A stretch of DNA of 64,000 nucleotides. Source: Dasypus novemcinctus. Its lineage: Eukaryota > Chordata > Mammalia > Cingulata > Dasypodidae. Of the stretch, positions 1-62,444 are shown piece by piece. The notes below the pieces were generated by a model that had not been told where the DNA came from, did no database searches, and saw only the letters and a program-made list of their open reading frames with translations. Made by a program: the position numbers and the translations under genes. Each line of letters begins with the position of its first letter. The first letter of the stretch is position 1. The stretch spans positions 578,731 through 642,730 of the forward strand of contig NC_080686.1 in NCBI RefSeq assembly GCF_030445035.2, in the 5' to 3' direction.

Positions 1-1115
1 GAACAAAGAGGTCAACTCAGACCGGCAGAATATCTCAGCCTACATGTAATATCAGGTGTTAAAAACTGCTTTTTTACTTTGGATAAAAAAGGGGGGAATG
101 GAAAGGACAAGTGAGTTTATATGGCTAAGAGGCTCCAAAAAAGAGTCAGGAGGTCATCGGGGGTGATGCTTATGCATGCCTCAGCAGGGTACCAGAGACA
201 GCCAAGGTAGATGGAAACCCAGGTGCTGGTTCTCCTGAGGACTGCAGCAACTCACAGTTCTATGGTCAAGGCAGATGGCTCTGGAGTTCAGGACCATGTT
301 AGTTGGCCTGACTTTGGAGTTTGTGTTCCTGAGTGTTATGGAGTTGGACTCAGATATAACCTTTCTACTCATGCCTCTTGTTACTTTTACTGGACCTGTG
401 GTTGGCACTTGGGTTGGTGTATACTCAGGAGACCTGAAACTCTGAACTGTCCATGTGATGGCCAGGCCCTGGGCCTCAGGAGACTTGCAGCTCCTACCCT
501 CTGGTTTCTTGGACTTACCCTGGCCAGCTGACAGGGAGGTGAAGAGGGTCAACCACCACACTAGGGAGCCAAGAGTGCCTACAGCTGCAAGCAGAAGAAT
601 TGCATCCATCATCCATGTGGAATCTAAACCTCCTCTTGAGGTAGAGGGGACTGGACATAGCCATCCCAGGTCCACAAGACACAGGAACAGAGTATGGATT
701 AGAGTGGACTTACTGGTGTTCTGCTGGGGAGCTATTGTGATAAGTAAGGGAAAAAACTGTAGTAGTGATGTGGAGAGGGTGGCCACGGTGGCTGCTGATG
801 GTTGGGAGAGGGAAGAAGAGATATGGTGTGGGGGAATTTTCAGGATTTGGAGTTGTCCTAGATGGTGCTGCAGGGATGGGTGCTGGACATTGTGTGTCCT
901 GTCGTGGCCCACTGTGTGGACTGGGGAAGACTATGGACTACAATCTAAACCACTGTCCATGTGCTGCAGCGGTTCTCCAGAATGTATTCGCCGAGTGCAG
1001 TGGATGTGCCACAATGAGTCTGTTGATATGGGAGGGGTGGGGTGGGTGGGGTGGGGGGTATATGGGGACCTCATATTTTTTTAATGTAACATTTAAAAGA
1101 AAATAAAGAAGAAGA
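1..1115 (+). mobile_element. Family TS retroposon (L1-tailed repeat), cut by window start
   Basis: Aligns by eye with 6810-7906, 19440-20550, 46600-48168 and the minus copies at 13256-13861 and 61432-62191. It ends in a G-rich stretch (1025-1060), the shared 3' end around acctcatatttttttaatg and an A-rich tail with AATAAA-like hexamers near 1100. The L1-like 3' end and A tail imply L1-mediated copying (inference). There is no sense ORF of note; the 243-codon minus frame 181-912 is antisense to the repeat. The true 5' end lies outside the window. Confidence 0.8.
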
Positions 1116-6305: not shown

Positions 6306-7906
6306 AATACTGGTATGGGATGTAATTGACAGGGGACACATGGTTGGCAGGGAGTTCTACAGGGCATATATCCAGGGTACATAAAAATGTTTGGATATTT
6401 TCATAGTGGCTACAATTAAAAACAACAACTTAGGGAGTGCTGAGTTCCTAACCAGGGGAGCTCTATCACAGTCCCTAAAGGAACAGCAACAATCCCCCAA
6501 GTGAAGAGTAAAGACCAAAAAAGAACGAAGGTCCAACAATGAGCCCTTGATACTAATGACTATGCTTGTGAGCCTGTGCACCTGAAATAAGAACAAGGCC
6601 TAGAGCTGCAGGGTGCCTAAGAGTTACCTCCTAAGAGCCTCTGTGTTGCACAAATGTGGCCAGTCTCAAAGCCAAACTCAGCGTGTAGATGTGTTGCCTT
6701 CCCCCCAGCGTGGGACATGACCCCTGAGGATGAGCCTTCCGGGTGCCAAGGGATTGCTACCAAGTACCAGCTGATGATGTAACTAGAAAATGACCTTGAA
6801 TAAAAGGGTCAACTCGGACCAGCAGAATATCTCAGTCTACATATAATACCAGGAGTTAAAAATGCTTTTTGACCTGAATAAAAGGGGGAAATGGAAAGGA
6901 CAAATGAGTTTATATGGGCTATGAGTCTCCAAAAAGAGACAGGAGGTTATCAGAGGGGTTGCCCTTATACACGCCTCAGCAGAGTCCCAGAGACAGATAA
7001 AGTAGATAAAACCCCAGGTATTGGTTCTTCTGAGGGCTACAGAGACTCACAGGTTCTATGGTCATGGCAGATGGAGCTCAGTGCCATGTCAGTTGGCTCT
7101 ACTTTGGAGTTTGTGTTTCTGTGTGATGGAGCTGGACTCAGATCTGATCTTTGTCCACAAGCCTCTCCTGTTACTTTTACCAGAACTATAGTTGGTGCTG
7201 GGGCTTAATGTATACCCAGGGGACCTGAATCTCTGGACTGACCATGTGATAGCCAGGCCCTGAGCCTCAACAGACTTGCAACTTCTACACTCTGGTTTAT
7301 TGGACTTACCCCACTCAGCTAACATGGAAGTGAAGAAGGTCAACCACCACACCAGGGAACCAAGTGTGCCTGCAACTGAAAGCAGGAGATTTGCATCCAG
7401 CATCCATGTGGAATCTAAGCCCCCTCTTGATATAGATGTGGAGTGGACGCAACCATTCCAAGGTCCACAGGATGGAGGAATAGAGTATGGATTAGAGTGG
7501 ATTTACTGATATTCTATTCATGAACTATTGTGATTAGTAATAGAAGAAAATGTGGCACTGGTGTGGAGAAAGTGGCCATGGTGGCTGCTGGGGGTAGGGA
7601 GTGGGAGGAAAAGATGTGAGGTGGGGGTGTTTTGGGGACTTGGAGTTGTCTTGGGTGGTGCTGCAGGGACAGTTACTGGATATTGTATGTCCTCCCATGG
7701 CCCACTGGGTGGACTGTGGGAGAGTGTGGGCTATGACATGGACCATTGACCATGAGGTGCAGTGGTGCTCAGAGATGTATTCGCCAAATGCAATGAATGT
7801 ATCATGATGATGGAGGTTGTTATGGGGGGAGGAGTGGGGTAAAGGGAGTGGGGGGATATAGGACCTCATTTTTTTAATGTAACATAAAAAAATAAAGACA
7901 AAAAAA
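6306..7906 (+). mobile_element. Family TS retroposon, 5'-truncated, with target duplication
   Basis: A 1.6-kb copy beginning at actggtatggg and ending in the TS tail plus an A-rich run. It is flanked by ctccttctttg (6295-6305) and ctcctcctttg (7911-7921), an imperfect 11-bp target site duplication. It aligns with the TS copies at 18692-20567 and 45886-48168. There is no sense ORF. The antisense strand has an open frame starting at 7403 with a hydrophobic N-terminal segment that recurs in other copies. Confidence 0.82.
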
Positions 7907-18691: not shown

Positions 18692-20567
18692 CAAACTGGG
18701 GGGAAGGCAATACATTTACATGCTGAGTTTGGCTTTGAGACTGGCCACATTTGAGCAACACAGAGGCTCTCAGGAGGTAATTCTTAGGCAATTCTTAGGC
18801 ACACTGCAGCTCTAGGCCTTGTTCTTATCTCAGGTGCACAGGCTCACAAGCATAATCATTAGTATCAAGGGCTCATTGTTGGATCTTCCTTCTTTTTTGG
18901 TCTTTCCTATTGCACTTGGGGGATTGTTGCTGTTCCTTTAGGGACTGTGATAGAGCTCCCCTGGCTAGGAACTCAGCACTCCCTCAGTTGTTTTTAATTG
19001 TAACAACTATGAAAATATCCAAACATCTTTATGTACCCTGGATATATGGATATATGCCCTGTAGAACTCCCTGCCAACCATGTGTCCCCTGTCAATAACA
19101 TCCCACACCAGTGTTCCTCCTCTGACATTGTTGAACCTCTCTGTGATCCAAAACTTCTTCAAAAATGAAGCCCTATATTGCCAGGTTCCATTAGTAATAA
19201 AATGAAATATAGTGATGAGCTTAAAGGTTAGATATAGAATACATATTAATTTAGAAAAATTAAGGTAAAAATAAATTGGGGTACCAAAAAATTTAAAAAT
19301 GCAAAAGCTTTATTTTTGATGTTTTGCCTTCCATCACTGCAATAAGTGTTGCCTTGTATGCAAACTGGCAAGGCAACTTCTTCCACCAAGGGATTACTAC
19401 CAAGTACCAGCTGATGATGTAACTAGAAAATGACCTTGAATAAAGGGGTCAACTCGGACCATCAGAATATCTGTCTACATATAATACCAGGAGTTAAAAA
19501 TGCTTTTTGACCTTGAATAAAAGGAGGAAAGGAAAGGACAAATGAGTTTATGTGGCTATGAGTCTCCAAAAAGAGCCGGGAGGTCATCAGAGTGGTTGCC
19601 CTTACGCACACCTCAGCAGAGTCCCAGAGACAGATAAAGAAGATACAACCCCAGGTACTGGTTCTTCTGAGGGCTACAGGGACCAACAGTTTCTGTGGTC
19701 ATGGCAGGTGGAGTTCAGTGCCATGTCAGTTGGCCCTAATTTGGAGTTTGTGTTTCTGTGTGATGGAGCTGGACTCAGATCTGATCTTTGTCCACAAGCC
19801 TCCCCTGTTATTTTACTGGATCTGTAGTTGGTGCTTGGGTTTAGTGTATACCCAGGGGACCTGAATCTCTGGACTGACCATGTGATAGCCAGGCCCTGAG
19901 CCTCAACAGACTTGCAACTCCTACACTCTGGTTTATTGGACTTACACCACTCTGCTAACATGGAGATGAAGAAGGTGAACCACCACACCAGGGAGCCAAG
20001 AGTGCCTACAACTGAAAGCAGGAGAATTGCATCCAGCATCCATGTGGAATCTAAGCCCTTTCTTTATATAGATGTGGAGTGGACACAACCATTCCAAGGT
20101 CCACAGGATGGAGGAATAGAGTATGGATTAGAGTGGACTTACTGATGTTCTATTCATGAATGATTGTGATTAGTAACTAAAGAAAATGTGGCATTGGTGT
20201 GGAGAAAGTGGTCATGGTGGCTGCTGGGGGCAGGGAGTGGGAGGGAGAGATGTGATGTGGGGGCATTTCCAGGGGTTAGAGTTGTCCTGGCTGGTGCTGC
20301 AGGGACAGTTACCAGTCATTGTATGTCCTCTCATGGCCCACTGGGTGGGCTGTGGGAGAGTGTAGGCTATGGTGTGGGCCATTGACCATGAGGTGCAGTG
20401 GTGCTCAGAGATGTATTCACCAAGTGCAATGAATGTCTCATGATGATGGAGGAGGTTGTTATGGGGGGGAAAGTGGGGTGAGGGAGATGGGGGTTTATAG
20501 GGACCTTGTATTTTTTTAAGGTAACATTAAAAAATTTTTTAAAGACCAAAAAAATGAAAAAAATAAT
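18692..20567 (+). mobile_element. Family TS retroposon with 5' inversion (twin priming)
   Basis: Flanked by identical 12-bp copies of aaatgcaatacc (18680-18691 and 20568-20579). The body has two parts. 18697 to about 19384 is the reverse complement of the TS 5' region (it matches 6310-6711 and 45900-46560). From about 19385 to 20550 the sequence runs forward and matches 6748-7906. About 30 bp are missing at the inversion junction. Inversion plus small deletion plus A tail plus target duplication is the known signature of twin priming by the L1 machinery. Confidence 0.9.
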
Positions 20568-30870: not shown

Positions 30871-31529
30871 TTTGTCCCATTGCCTGGGACTGTCCAGCTG
30901 ACTAGGGGTCTCCTAGAAGGAAAATTCACATAACAGGACATATTACAAATGCCTATAATGATCCCTTCCCAGAATCTTATTATTGTGTATTTTGTAGGAA
31001 AAACACTCATTTTAATAAAAATCAAATGTTGAAAAAGGTACACAATGAAAGGTAAGCCTCCCTCTCATCCAGCCTGTTCCCTCCATTCTACCTCTGCCCA
31101 GACACCCACTTACCAATTTCACACACCTCCTTGCAGGATAAGCCATCCAGACACAAGTATATATGCCTGTGTCTCATTGCACACCCTATGTTTTACAAGT
31201 TTTTTTAACTTAAATCATTCAGTCATTAAGTCAACCTTTCTTAAAGAAATGCTCAAAATAGACCTAATAGCTTGACCATGTAACATAAAGTCACATCAGG
31301 ATACTCTTAGTGAGAGGGGGTGACATGAAAAGGAAGGACAACGGACATAAAACAGAACTGCCCTCAACAAGGGGGAGCACACAGTCATCCTGGAGCGCAT
31401 CCATCTGTTTAACGGCTCTGTGGAAACCCAGTTCATGGACTTTCTTTAATTGACAAATCAGTGATCTGGAGTCCCCCAGCTCCACCCAGATGAATGTACC
31501 ACCTCCTGCTCCAGCAGCAGGAGGTCCAG
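30871..31529. other. Mixed single-copy and unassigned sequence
   Basis: The part 31020-31160 (gtacacaatgaaagg...) resembles an old unnamed repeat. 31290-31529 is GC-richer and open on the minus strand, and this open frame fuses into the antisense of the following TS copy. No protein family recognised. Confidence 0.35.
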
Positions 31530-32048
31530 CATGGAGCCTAGAGTGATTACAACTGAAAATGGGAGGATTGCATCCAGCATCCAGGTGGAATCTGAGCCTC
31601 CTCTTGACATAGAGGTGCAATGGACACAACCAATCCAATGTCCACATAGAAGAGGTGGCATTGGATTGGGAAAAGTGGACATGGTGGACGATGGGTATGG
31701 AGAAAGGCAGGAAGAGATGAGAGGTGGAGGCATCTTTGGGACATGGAGCTGCCCCGGATGGTGCTTCAGAGGTAATCACCGGACATTGTAAATCCTCACA
31801 GGGCCCACTGGATGGAATGGAGGAGAGTATGGGCCATGATGTGGACCATTGTCTATGAGGTGCAGAGGTGCCCAAAGATGTACTTACCAAATCCAATGGA
31901 TGTGTCATGATGATGGGAATGAGTGTTGCTGGGGGGGGGGGAGAGGTGGGGTGGGGGGGTGGGGTTGAATGGGACCTCACATATATATTTTTAATGTAAT
32001 ATTATTACAAAGTCAATAAAAAAATATGAATGGAAAAAAAAAAAAAAA
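31530..32048 (+). mobile_element. Family TS retroposon, 5'-truncated
   Basis: Nearly identical in order to 53945-54440: atggagcctagagtgattac, gacatagaggtgcaatgg, a G-rich run at 31930-31968, acctcacatatatatt and an A15 tail at 32033-32048. It belongs to the younger subtype shared with 53681-54534 and 61432-62191. No convincing target duplication was found. Confidence 0.85.
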
Positions 32049-42328: not shown

Positions 42329-42752
42329 AGGGGCGGTGGACTTGGCCCAGTGGTTAGGGCATCTGTCTACCACATAGGAGATCCGAGGTTCAAACCCCAG
42401 GCCTCCTTGACCCGTGTGGAGCTGGCCCATGCACAGTGCTGATGCGCGCAAGGAGTGCCGTGCCATGCAGGGGTGTCCCGGTGTAGGGAAGCCCCACGTG
42501 CAAGGAGTACGCCCCATATGGAGAGCCACCCAGCGTGAAAGAAAGTGCAGCCTGCCCAGGAATGGTGCCACACACACGGAGAGCTGACACAACAAGATGA
42601 CACAACAAAAAGAAACACAGATTCCCATGCCGTTGACAACAACAGAAGCGGACAAAGAAGACGATGCAGCAAATAGACACAGAGAACAGACAACTGGGGT
42701 TGGGGGGGTGAAGAGGAGAGAAATAAATAAATATATATATATATATTTTTTA
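42329..42752 (+). mobile_element. DAS-type SINE
   Basis: Head ggtggacttggcccagtgg with box A intact, box B ggttcaaaccc, tail with (TA)n at 42731-42747. Flanked by aagtaaaa-like repeats. Confidence 0.92.
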
Positions 42753-43856
42753 AAGTAAAAGTTACACTATGAAAAAAAAAGTTTCACTATGTACAGATGA
42801 CATGATCCTATACAGAGAAAGCCCTCAGGAACAAAGCTTCTAGAACTTACAAATGAGTTCAGTAAAGTCAAAGGTTATAAGAATAATGCAAAAAAATAAG
42901 TAGCATTCCTCTACACCAATAATGAGCAATCTGATGAGGAAATCAAGAAAAAAAATACCATTTACAATAGAAACTTAAAAAAATCAAATATCTAGAAATA
43001 ATTTAACTAAAGAAGTAAATGACTTATACATAGACAACTACAAAGAACTGTTAAAGAAAATCAAAGAAGACTTAAATAAATGGAAGAATATTCCCTGCTC
43101 ATGGATAAGAAGACTAAATATCATTGAGATGTCTGTCCTACCCAAACTAATCTACAGATTTAATGCAATCCCAATAAAACACAGCGTTTTTTTAATGAAT
43201 TGGAAAGACTTACTATGAAATTTATTTGGAAGGGCAAGAGTCCCTGAATATTCAAGGACATACTGACAAAGTAAAATGAAATTGGAGGAATCACACTACC
43301 TGACTTTAAGGCATACTACAAAGCTACAGTGGTCAAAATTGCATGGTACTGGCATAAGAAGACTTAATAACTAATGGAACTGAACTGAGAGTTCTGATAT
43401 AGATCATGGCATGTACAGTCATTTGATCCTCAGCAAAGCCACCAAGCCCACTCAACTGGGAGAGAATGGCCTCTTCAAGAAATGGTGCTTGGACACTGGA
43501 TATGAATACCCAAAAGAATAGCCATCTCACACCTTATACAAAAACTAACTAAAGATGGATCAAAGATCTAATTATAAGAGCCAAGACCATAAAGACCTTG
43601 GAAGGTAAGTAGGGAAGCTTCTATAAGACCTTGTAATAGGAAATGTCTTCATGAACTTCAAACCCAAAGCATGAGAAGCAAAAGAAAGAAATAGATAAAT
43701 GGGACTGCCTCAAAATTAAAACCATTTGCACCAGAAAGAAGTTTGCGATGAAAGTGAAAAGACAATGGTAGAAAGTATTTGGTAACCAAATATCTGATAG
43801 GAGCCTAATATCCAGCATATGTAAAGAAATCCTATATCTCAAAAATAAAAAGACAT

Positions 43857-49085: not shown

Positions 49086-50110
49086 TTATGAGCCAGAAGA
49101 AGAAAATGGAAGACATAACCCAGGAAAAGGAATATATCAAAGTCCCAGAAGAGATGCAGGATTTGAGAGAACTAATTAATAAGATGTGTACCAATTTCCA
49201 AAATTAAATTCATGAGTTGAAGGACAATATGGCTAAAGGGATGAATGACATCAAGAAGACGTTGAGCAAGCAAAAAACAGAATTTGAAATGTGGAACAGA
49301 AAAGCAACAGAGCTCATGGGAATGAAAGACACGATAGGTGACATCAAAAACACATTAAAGGTCTACAACAATTTCAGGCAGACTTGAAAGGACAGAAGAA
49401 AGTATAAGTGATACCAAAGACAGAACAGCTGAAACTGAAGAGAGAAAAGAACAGAGGGAGGAAAAAAATGGGGAAAAAAATTGAGCAGAGGCTCAGGGAG
49501 ATGAATGACAACAGAAAACGGACAACAGCATACATGTCATGGGAGTTCCAGAAAGAGAAGAGAAGGGAAAAGGATTAGAAATAATATTTAAGGGAATAGT
49601 AAAAATTTCCCAATGCTCACAAAAGGAATGACCCTGCATGTCTAAGAAGCCCACCTTATCCTAATCAGAATAAATCCAAATAGACATACTCCAAAAGATA
49701 TATTATTCAGAATGTCAAAAGTCAAAGATAAAGAGAAAATTCTGAGAGCAGTAAGGCAAGCAAATCAACATATACAAGGGATGCCCAGTAATAGTATGGA
49801 TTTCTCATCAGAAACCATGGAGGTAAGAAGAGAGTGGTATGATGCAATAAGGAGACTGAAAGAGAAAAACTACCAGCCAAGAATTCTGCATCCAGCAAAA
49901 CTGTCCTCCAAATATGAAGGTGAGTATAAAATATCCACAAACAGAAACTAAGAGAGTTTGTAAAAGAGAATCCAAATTGCAGGAAATAATAAGGAAGCCA
50001 TAGAGCCTGAAAGAAAAAGAAGAGAAAGGCCTGGAGGAGAGTAGGGAAAAAAGAAGAGCAGAAAGGATAACCAAGAGAAAAAAGACACCAAAATATGACA
50101 TGACACATGA
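49086..50110 (+). pseudogene. L1 ORF1 pseudogene
   Basis: Coiled-coil-like first half (49100-49500), then the conserved C-terminal region with the frame 49712-49951 (KVKDKEKILRAVRQ, then an arg-rich segment before an in-frame stop). Homologous to 39300-39730 and 23160-23530. Broken by several stops and frameshifts. Confidence 0.75.
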
Positions 50111-53680: not shown

Positions 53681-54534
53681 TTAACTACCAGGGCAGATGG
53701 CCCCTCTTTGGAAATGGTGTTTATGTGTGATGAATCTGGACTCAGATGGGATCTCCCTTCATAAGACTTTCATGCTAATGTGCTGGAGGTGCAGTTAATG
53801 TTGGGGTTTAAGATATATTTAGGGGATTTGAATCTCTGGACTGACAATGTGATAGCCAGATCCTGAGCCTCAACAGACTCCAGCACCTACAATCTGATTT
53901 ATTGGACTTACCACACTCAGCTAAGATGGAGTTGAAGAAGGACAACCACCACACCATGGAGCCTAGAGTGATTACAACTGAAAATGGGAGGATTGCATCC
54001 AGCATCCAGGTGGAATCTGACCCTCCTCTTGACATAGAGGTGCAATGGACACAACCAATCCAATGTCCACATAGAAGAGGTGGCATTGGATTGGGAAAAG
54101 TGGACATAATGGACAAAGGGTATGGGGAAAGGCAGGAAGAGATGAGAGGTGGAGGCGTCTTCGGGACACGGAGCTGCCCTGGATGGTGCTTCAGAGGTAA
54201 TCACCGGACATTGTAAATCCTCACAGGGCCCACTTGATGGAATAGAGGAGAGTATGGGCCATGATGTGAACCAATGTATATGAGGTGCAGAGGTGCCCAA
54301 AGATGTACTTACCAAATCCAATGGATGTGTCATGATGATGGGAACGAGTGTTGTTGGGGGGGGGAGAGGGGGGGTGGGGGGGTGGGGTTGAATGGGACCT
54401 CACATATATATTTTTAATGTAATATTATTACAAAGTCAATAAAAAATAAAAAAATTAAAAAAAATAAAAATAAAAAAATAATAAAAAAAATAAAAAAATA
54501 AAAAATGCACACAGGAAAAATAAATAAATAAATA
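53681..54534 (+). mobile_element. Family TS retroposon with perfect 16-bp target duplication
   Basis: Flanked by aataaatggtgctggg at 53665-53680 and 54535-54550, splitting the L1 ORF2 phrase that continues after it. 5'-truncated, forward orientation, G-rich run at 54354-54388, then a long impure (A)nT tail 54430-54534. One of the youngest-looking TS insertions here. Confidence 0.93.
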
Positions 54535-59719: not shown

Positions 59720-60480
59720 TGGTTATTTTTAGCATGGAGTATCTTTTTCAAAGATTTCACTTTCAGGCAGTTTTTATCCCTGGATCTAAGGTGAGTCTCT
59801 TGTAGGCAGCACATGGATGGCTCATGTTTTTCCATCCATTCTGTCAGCCTGTATCTTTTTTTTTAAGATTTATTTTATTTATTCCTATCCTCTTACCCCT
59901 CCATTGTCTGCTCTCTGTGTCCATGTGCTGTGTGTTTTTCTGTGTCTGCTTGCATTATCTGGCAGCACTGGGAAACTGTCTTTTTTTGTTGTTCCATCAT
60001 CTTGCTGTGTCAGCTCTCCATGTGCAGTGCCACTCCTGGGTGAGCTGCACCTTTTTTTCACATAGGGCAGCTCTCCTTGTGGGGTGCACTCCTTACACAT
60101 AAGGCACCGCTATGCAGGGGCATCCCTGCATGGCAGAGCACTCCTTGAGTGCAGCAACACTGCACGTGGGCCAGCTTACCACACAGGTCAGGAGGCCCTG
60201 GGGATTGAACCCTGGGCCCTCCATGTGGTAGATGGATTCTCTAGCAGGTGAACCATGTCTGCTTCCCAGCCTATATCTTTTGACTGGGGAGTTTAATCTA
60301 TTCACATTCAATGTTATTACTGTAAATGCATTATTTACTTCTATCATTTTATTCTTTGGTTTTCATATGTCATGTCTTATTTCTGTCTGTATTTTCACTC
60401 TCTTGATTATCCTTTCTGCTATTCTTTCTTTTATAATCTCTTCCAAACCTCTGTCTCCTGTCTTTTTCTGTCAGGTGGTA
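59720..60480 (-). pseudogene. L1 ORF2 5' part (endonuclease), truncated
   Basis: Minus-strand L1 ORF2. Its start region lies at 60320-60281 (complement of ttttgactggggagtttaat...), and it runs into the endonuclease, with the complement of gagtctcttgtaggcagcac near 59800. It ends about 59720, so RT and 3'UTR are missing. Interrupted by the SINE 59860-60266. Confidence 0.75.
59860..60266 (-). mobile_element. DAS-type SINE
   Basis: Reverse copy flanked by cagcctgtatctttt (59845-59859) and cagcctatatctttt (60267-60281). The body is diverged and CpG-poor; box B complement is gggattgaaccct near 60202. Confidence 0.92.
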
Positions 60481-61189
60481 AGGTCTCCTTTAATATTTCC
60501 TACAAAATGGAATCATTTTTATGAATTCTCTTAATTTCTGTTTTCTTTGTATTTTAAATGCACCTTTCATATTTGAAGGCCAATTTTGGTGGATAAAGAT
60601 TTCTCAGCTGGCAGTTTTTCTCTTTTAGTATCCTAATTACATCATGCCATTGTCTTCTCTTCTTCAAGTACTGATGAGAAATCCACAAAAAAATCTTTCT
60701 GGGCATCCATTGTATGTGATAGTTTGCTTCTCCATTGCTGTTGTCAGAATTTTCTCTTTATCTTTGACATTTGGCAATTGGAGTAGTCCTGTTAGACCTA
60801 CTATGAATCTGAATAGACCTGTTGAAGTAGGTCTATTCACATTTATTCTGATTGGGGTACACTGTGCTTCCTGGACATGCAAGGTCATTACTTTCATAAG
60901 GGTTGGGAAATTTTCAGCTCTTATTACCTCAGATACTCTTTCTACTCCTTTCCCTTCTCTTCCCCTTCTGGAACTGACATGACATGCATGTGGTTGTGTT
61001 TTCTGTTATCACTCAACTCCCTGAGCCCTTGCTCAATTTTTCACATTCTTTTCTCTTTCTGTTCTTTTCTTTCTTCCATTTCTGCTGTTCTGTCTTCTGC
61101 ATCACTTATTGTTTATTCTGTCATTTCAAACTTGCTGTTGTATGCCTCTAATGTTTTGTTGTTGTTTTGTTTGTTTCCTCTTAAAGAGG

Positions 61190-61370: not shown

Positions 61371-61431
61371 TCTAATTTGTTTTTTATCCCACTATTGTGT
61401 CTTTCTTTACCCTGAGTTCTGTTACTTTTCT

Positions 61432-62191
61432 TTTTTTTTTTAAGAGCCTTTTTGTAATGAATAATTTTATTGTTGTGGGTGAGTTTGTTCAGTCCTCAAG
61501 CCTCCTAATTCCTGTCTTTACTGTCTTTTTTTTAATTATTTATTTATTTTTTAATTTACATTAAAAAAAATATGAGGTCCCATTCAACCCCACCGCCCCC
61601 CCACTCCCCCCACAGCAACACTCTCTCCCATCATCATGACACATCCATTGCACCTGGTAAAGTTCATCTCTGAGCATCACTGCACCCCTTAGTCAATGGT
61701 CCACATCATAGCCCAGCCTCTCTCACGTTCCATCCAGTGGGCCCTGGGGGGATCTACAGTGTCCCGTAATTGTCCATGAAGCACTATCCAGGACAACTCC
61801 ACGTCCCGAAAATGCCTCCACATCTCATCTCTTCCTCCCGTTCCCCACACCCAGCAGCCCCCATGGCTACCGTTCCCACACCCATTCCACATTTTCTCTG
61901 TGGACATTGGATTGGTTGTGTCCATTGCACACCTATGTCAAGTGAGGGCTTAGATTCCACATGGGTACTGGATGCACTCCTCCCGCTTCTAGTTGTAGAC
62001 ACTCTAGGCTCCATGTTGTGGTGGTTGACCTTCTTCAACTCCATGTTAGCTGAGTGGAGTAAGTCCAATAAATCAAAGTGTAGGAGCTGAAGTCTGTTGA
62101 GGCTCTGGGCCTGGGTGTCATATTATCAGTCCAGAGATTCAAATCCCCTACATATATCTCAAACCCAGCACCAACTACAATTCCAATAAAG
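61432..62191 (-). mobile_element. Family TS retroposon with 3' transduced segment
   Basis: Identical 12-bp flanks tgttacttttct at 61420-61431 and 62192-62203. Reading the minus strand, the TS body (62191 to about 61545) ends in its usual terminus and an A-rich run. About 84 bp of unrelated sequence follow (61525-61442), with an AATAAA hexamer at 61471-61466, then a second A run (61441-61432) directly next to the target duplication. This is the structure of a 3' transduction by read-through polyadenylation. Confidence 0.88.
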
Positions 62192-62444
62192 TGTTACTTT
62201 TCTATTCAGGCTTCCAAATTCTTCTTTGTGCTCACTTGTCTTCTTGATATCTTTTATCTTTTTATCCATATCATCTTTCAATTCATTAATTTGATTTTGG
62301 AAGTTTGTATGCATCTCCTTGGTTAGTTGTCTGAAATCCTGTGTCTCTTCTGGGGACTTTGATAGATTCCTTTTCTTGGGTCATTTCTTCTCTTTTCTCA
62401 GAATGACTTGTAACTTTTTCCTGATGTCTAGGCATCTGATTTGA

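What the first reader, a model, noticed from the sequence alone, without database searches (positions are those of the whole stretch)
61432..62191. 3' transduction carried by a non-coding retroposon (family TS)
Seen directly: identical 12-bp target duplications, the repeat body, its own A-rich end, 84 bp of unrelated sequence with AATAAA 25 bp before a second A tract, then the duplication. From L1 biology, this is what read-through of a weak internal polyadenylation signal leaves. The transduced 84 bp are a tag for the source copy, so the master locus of family TS could be located.
Basis: partly seen in the sequence, partly recalled or inferred. Interest (0 to 1): 0.75.

Follow-up and report, generated by a model that had tools for sequence, protein, structure and literature searches.

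The report
L1 insertion carrying antibody-locus DNA
A broken-off end of a young LINE-1 jumping gene landed here together with 84 bases copied from an antibody-gene region elsewhere in the same genome; this is a well-known copying habit of LINE-1, and the parent copy was not found in this assembly.

Summary
A 12-bp target duplication (61420-61431, 62192-62203) brackets a minus-strand insert: repeat body, A-rich tail, 84-bp tag, AATAAA 24 nt before a second A tract. A diverged copy of the host L1 in the window shows the empty site.

"Family TS" is not a separate non-coding retroposon. It is the 3' end of the 3' UTR of a young LINE-1 (98.2% to L052, which has open ORF1 and ORF2). This copy is 5'-truncated.

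The tag is neither L1 consensus nor host L1. Elsewhere it is genomic DNA without an A tract, in at least 34 copies on contig C28 (81.8-97.5 Mb), next to an immunoglobulin V gene (kappa-like). The L1/tag junction lies on an L1-endonuclease-type site (TT/AAGACA) that a SINE used in one paralogue. The AATAAA is present in 2 of 25 paralogues read.

No L1 was found beside the tag: 0 of 40 scored flank places, and a whole-genome pattern search found only this insertion's five duplicates and the SINE. It fits a "parentless" L1 3' transduction, a kind described in dogs. Odds: 0.88 3' transduction; rivals are template switching and nested insertion. New member of a known kind.

The parts
62192..62203 (-). 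5' target-site duplication (minus strand AGAAAAGTAACA)
   Evidence: identical to 61420-61431
61526..62191 (-). 5'-truncated end of a LINE-1 3' UTR with its A-rich tail (A8 at 61526-61533)
   Evidence: 98.2% to L052 8323-8998, a copy with ORF1 and ORF2; 2 substitutions in 623 from the majority of 20 young copies
61442..61525 (-). 84-bp transduced tag from a C28 repeat cluster beside an immunoglobulin V gene
   Evidence: 98% to C28:84822247 and C28:84354632, 83-98% to 34 C28 places among 40 scored of 61 candidates; no A tract follows it in the 15 loci read
61466..61471 (-). AATAAA polyadenylation signal within the tag, 24 nt before the outer A tract
   Evidence: present in 2 of 25 C28 tag loci read
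61432..61441 (-). outer poly(A) tract (A10)
   Evidence: absent after the tag in the 15 C28 loci read
61420..61431 (-). 3' target-site duplication
60264..61169 (-). host: older L1, ORF1 part, same orientation as the insert (continues on the other side of the insert from 62204)
   Evidence: 64% to L052 1913-2793; joined host aligned to L052 1620-2456
49298..49309 (+). empty site in a diverged copy of the host L1

Best explanation
A young LINE-1 sat at a TT/AAGACA site in one member of a repeat cluster beside immunoglobulin V genes (the AATAAA-bearing lineage on C28). Its transcript ran past the L1's own 3' AATAAA region into flanking DNA and was cleaved and polyadenylated after an AATAAA at positions 55-60 of the flank, giving an 84-nt tag. 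L1 ORF2p primed reverse transcription of that RNA at a new site, in the ORF1 part of an older L1. It copied poly(A), tag, the old A tail and about 620 bp of L1 3' UTR, then stopped: a 5'-truncated insertion with a 12-bp target duplication. The locus was later copied to four other places by segmental duplication. Shown: target duplication, empty site, L1 identity of the body, genomic origin of the tag, junction on an endonuclease-type site, one event in five duplicates. Inferred: read-through transcription, and the existence of the source L1, which was not found in this assembly (unassembled, segregating or lost).
For: Single event: TSD and empty site. Body is L1 3' UTR. Tag is plain genomic DNA on C28 and in the 15 loci read is followed by AATATAGG..., not by A's. 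The tag starts right after TATTAA, i.e. at TT/AAGACA; in 60 kb of the cluster only 107 of 5266 and 115 of 6462 AA-preceded positions are of this type. A SINE occupies exactly this site in C28:97492136, with AAGACAGTAAAG before and AAGACAATAAAG after it. AATAAA in 2 of 25 tag loci read, the two closest to the tag, with U/GU-rich DNA downstream. Human transductions: 71% (248/349) shorter than 100 bp and 79% (274/349) with a signal 10-30 bp before the end (PMC13009371, passages).
Against: No L1 lies at the site in the assembly: of 40 scored flank places (86 candidates) 35 abut the tag, 1 holds a SINE, 4 hold an inverted SINE-like insert just inside the tag; pattern search over the genome found no further A-tract-plus-tag. 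The tag differs at 2 of 84 positions from its closest genomic copies although the L1 body is only 2 in 623 from its family majority. 4 of 4 other young copies whose target duplication could be seen carry no transduction.
Confidence: 0.88

Rival explanations
1. Chimeric insertion without any source L1 at the tag: reverse transcription began on the poly(A) of an RNA made from the C28 cluster, copied 84 nt, then jumped to the poly(A) of an L1 RNA (template switch), or the two RNAs were ligated beforehand.
For: No L1 beside the tag was found in this assembly; RNA ligation and template switching by L1 are described (PMC13174262, passages); the AA at the junction could serve as microhomology with an A tail.
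Against: It does not predict a junction on an endonuclease-type site (about 2% of AA-preceded positions), nor one that a SINE also used. The passages read describe the partner RNA on the 5' side of the L1.
Confidence: 0.07
2. Two events: a plain truncated L1 first, then an 84-bp truncated copy of a C28 RNA inserted into its A tail; a duplication made only of A's would be invisible.
For: A tails are good L1-endonuclease targets (recall); nothing in the A runs excludes it.
Against: The L1 body is young (2 of 623) and all five duplicates carry both parts, so two events would have to hit the same spot in a short time; the endonuclease-type start of the tag is again unexplained.
Confidence: 0.03
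3. One reading: the carrier is an independent non-coding retroposon family 'TS' that transduced its flank.
For: Several copies in the window alone look like a short repeat with an A-rich end.
Against: 20 of 20 young copies fetched (of 35 listed) continue 5' of this copy's start (L037, L047 and L048 share a downstream flank, so not all 20 are independent); copies are truncated at different points with 15-bp duplications (L007, L033, L041, L045); L052 carries ORF1 and ORF2 upstream of the same 3' end.
Confidence: 0.02

Closest known systems
LINE-1 3' transduction in human (PMC9311842 and PMC13009371, passages read; Moran 1999, Goodier 2000, Pickeral 2000 seen only as reference-list entries)
   Same: Two A tracts, a short flank tag ending shortly after a polyadenylation signal, target duplication around the whole
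Parentless 3' transductions in dogs (PMC13103737, passages) and 'proxy elements' in human data (PMC13009371, passages)
   Same: Tag maps to a locus with no adjacent L1 in the reference
   Different: In the dog example a second assembly held the full-length parent; no second assembly could be searched here
LINE-1 chimeras with other RNAs (PMC13174262, outline and passages)
   Same: L1 and non-L1 sequence within one target duplication
   Different: In the passages read the partner lies on the 5' side of the L1; here it is 3' and ends after a polyadenylation signal
Xenarthran LINE-1 (XenaLINE; PMC1764860, passages)
   Same: Recently active L1 lineage in armadillo, some members over 98% alike
   Different: That work compares the reverse transcriptase region; the 3' UTR was not compared with it here

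Membership tests
LINE-1 (body of the insert) | Homology to an element with L1 ORF1 and ORF2 | tested here: met
   98.2% over 676 bp to the 3' end of L052, which has a 323-aa ORF1 (Transposase_22, dsRBD) and a 1304-aa ORF2 (endonuclease, RVT_1; PDB L1 ORF2p)
LINE-1 (body of the insert) | Poly(A) tail, target duplication and variable 5' truncation | tested here: met
L1 3' transduction | Non-L1 tag between the L1's A-rich end and a second A tract, inside one target duplication | tested here: met
L1 3' transduction | Tag is genomic DNA elsewhere, not followed by an A tract | tested here: met
   15 of 15 C28 loci read
L1 3' transduction | Polyadenylation signal 10-30 nt before the tag end | tested here: met
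   AATAAA ends 24 nt before the A tract, also genomic in L014 and L015
L1 3' transduction | L1/tag junction at an endonuclease site in the source locus | tested here: met
   TT/AAGACA; a SINE used the same site in L024/L061
L1 3' transduction | Source L1 directly upstream of the tag | tested here: inconclusive
   Not found in this one assembly; other haplotypes and animals could not be searched
Separate non-coding retroposon family 'TS' | Own discrete 5' end and no coding relative | tested here: not met

The most novel reading that the evidence does not exclude
No source L1 ever stood at the tag: the insert is an L1 RNA joined at its 3' end to a polyadenylated non-coding RNA from an immunoglobulin V cluster (template switch or ligation), on the opposite side from the L1 chimeras described in the passages read.
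Probability: 0.07. Interest if true: 0.45.

Novelty: new member of a known kind. Interest (0 to 1): 0.25.

Why it matters
The process is ordinary. Its use is narrow: it marks a recently active L1 lineage and points to a base-exact place (TT/AAGACAG in the AATAAA lineage of the C28 cluster) where a competent L1 probably sits or sat in some individuals. It also shows that two L1-type insertions used one base-exact site in paralogues of an antibody-gene cluster.

Tried and rejected
Considered and rejected: (a) tag is part of the L1 3' consensus: absent from 35 of 40 scored copies. (b) tag is host L1 sequence: the host paralogue runs through the site without it. (c) the five 760-bp matches are independent daughters: they share host flanks, so they are segmental duplicates. 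(d) the common match end at 62191 is a real element end: it was only the end of my query, and the copies go on. (e) a terminal exon joined by splicing: no AG directly precedes GACAG in 14 of the 15 C28 loci; the fifteenth, L024, has the SINE there.

Led nowhere: a Pfam scan of ten short window frames gave only weak matches below the curated cut-offs; Rfam gave one tRNA match. Paper searches listed nothing that I recognised as a report of L1 transduction in armadillo or of the armadillo kappa locus (listings only, open-licence PMC library). Alignment print-outs in two scripts came out empty; the empty site was redone, and the SINE was read from the sequence that one search printed. Two paper look-ups failed on term syntax. 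A genome search with the V-gene protein and one with another window stretch did not complete, so the cluster's V-gene content rests on one gene and the extent of the segmental duplication is not measured.

Full report
Observation. On the minus strand the insert reads: AGAAAAGTAACA (62203-62192), then CTTTATTGGAATTG... down to an A-rich end at 61526, the 84-bp tag (61525-61442), A10 (61441-61432), and AGAAAAGTAACA again (61431-61420). The window holds a second, diverged copy of the host L1: the two flanks map there with an overlap of exactly 12 bp, 49298-49309, and the joined flanks align to it with no gap at the junction (101 identities, 23 mismatches, small gaps elsewhere; 11 of 12 in the site itself). 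The insert is one target-primed event in the ORF1 part of an older L1.

What the body is. A genome search with the 760 bases gave 3639 candidates, 40 scored. Five matched the whole query; 35 matched the body only (97-99%), starting at query 80-101, without the tag. The first 20 of the 35 were fetched with 500-bp flanks; all 20 continue 5' of the point where the window copy begins (L037, L047 and L048 share a downstream flank, so not all are independent). Copies start at different points: L007 (the same place as L030), L033, L041 and L045 have a 15-bp duplication right after the A tail, so 4 of 4 where this could be seen carry no transduction. Further upstream, L052 and L053 align over 9 kb at 96.6%. 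L052 has reading frames of 323 and 1304 aa, which are L1 ORF1 (Transposase_22, dsRBD) and ORF2 (endonuclease, RVT_1; PDB L1 ORF2p), followed by about 2.5 kb of 3' UTR that ends in the 'TS' sequence (98.2% over 676 bp). At least one older 'TS' copy in the window also lies at the end of an L1: window 40119-47187 matches L052 from ORF2 into the same 3' UTR, in four pieces. So 'TS' is an L1 3' UTR end.

One event, duplicated. The five whole-length places (C25 = window, C165, C55, C12, C102) share the host flanks at 99.5-100%. Over about 3.76 kb the four others differ from the window by 1, 1, 7 and 8 mismatches plus 0, 4, 11 and 6 gap positions. The window body differs from the majority of 20 young copies at 2 of 623 positions (the 20 themselves: 0 to 6 of 622-627); all five duplicates share those two, and L004 and L005 have two more each. 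With a recalled rate of about 2e-9 per site and year this is of the order of one to two million years (inference).

Where the tag comes from. The tag alone gave 61 candidates, 40 scored: the five duplicates (100%), 34 places on C28 (81.8-97.5 Mb) and one on C493, at 83-98%. Fifteen of these 35 were read: in 15 of 15 the tag is followed by AATATAGG(T/G)CTTATG, not by an A tract; in 14 it is preceded by GTGGTATTAA or a close variant, in L024 by a SINE. No L1 adjoins the tag; older L1 3' ends lie about 1 kb away in L014-L019. The cluster DNA beside the closest copy encodes an immunoglobulin V domain (L058 6273-6644; V-set, 2e-18); of the 7777 PDB sequences matched, the 60 shown are antibody fragments, several named as light chains. 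That its DIVMTQSP start is kappa-like is recall, and the assignment rests on one gene.

Why 3' transduction. First, in the paralogues the tag begins right after TATTAA, so the site reads TT/AAGACA. TT/AAAA as the L1 motif is stated in a passage of PMC13174262; that AAGA is a favoured variant is recall. In 60 kb of the cluster 107 of 5266 and 115 of 6462 AA-preceded positions (two strands) are of the type TTAA+AA/GA/AG. Second, in paralogue C28:97492136 a SINE sits at exactly this site, with AAGACAGTAAAG before it and AAGACAATAAAG after it. Third, the AATAAA is present in 2 of 25 tag loci read (L014, L015, which are near-identical duplicates, 1 difference in 3084); the other 23 have AATCAA or another variant. 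Those two are also closest to the tag (82 of 84). Fourth, the DNA after the tag in L014 is U/GU-rich, as expected at a cleavage site (recall).

What is missing. The 160 bp upstream of the tag gave 86 candidates, 40 scored (39 on C28, one on C493). By coordinates, 25 lie within 3 bp of a tag match and one (97492643) is separated from its tag by the SINE. The remaining 14 were read: ten abut a diverged tag and four (L071-L074) hold an inverted SINE-like insert a few bases inside it (by eye). None of the 40 has an L1 at the site; 46 candidates were not scored. A genome-wide pattern search for six A's plus the tag start, up to two mismatches, found the five duplicates and the SINE-occupied paralogue, all exact (the reversed control pattern had 12 matches, so at two mismatches chance hits are possible). 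No L1-occupied source was found. The 2 of 84 tag differences, against 2 of 623 in the body, hint that the source was a relative or allele of L014/L015 rather than either itself (weak inference).

Comparison. This is the anatomy of a standard L1 3' transduction (PMC9311842, PMC13009371, passages). 'Parentless' cases are described in dogs, where a second assembly held the parent (PMC13103737, passages). A preprint counts 506 full-length L1 in the nine-banded armadillo (PMC12424770, passage). Searches listed no report of L1 transduction in armadillo that I recognised.

Verdict. Observation confirmed; mechanism probably right (0.88); element identity wrong; source not found. A clean new member of a known kind, of modest interest.

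Noticed in passing
L001-L005 (C25, C165, C55, C12, C102): The window's end belongs to a young segmental duplication in at least five places (1 to 8 mismatches over about 3.76 kb); two of them lie near contig ends (C25 at 0.64 of 110 Mb, C12 at 128.9 of 130.2 Mb).
   Followed up: partly
L061 (C28:97489000-97495000); L071-L074: A SINE sits at the same base-exact site beside the tag in one paralogue, and four other paralogues hold an inverted SINE-like insert a few bases away: a small insertion hot spot.
   Followed up: partly
L052 6529-8998: The young L1 has a 3' UTR of about 2.5 kb; both reading frames of L052 are open.
   Followed up: no
window 386-1078, 7176-7873, 19812-20513, 53784-54405, 31527-31982: Older L1 3' UTR ends of several ages; the window copy and those at 53784 and 31527 lack about 75-80 bp present in the other three (match lengths).
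   Followed up: no
L029 (C6:79803888-79805566) and L031 (C30:12272323-12273997): Two young L1 copies have further sequence and a second A tract after their A tail (a SINE end in L029, about 25 bp in L031); either nested insertion or transduction.
   Followed up: no
window 42336-42406: tRNA match at 29.6 bits (gathering 29), lying in a gap of the L1 alignment 42329-42778; perhaps a tRNA-derived SINE.
   Followed up: no
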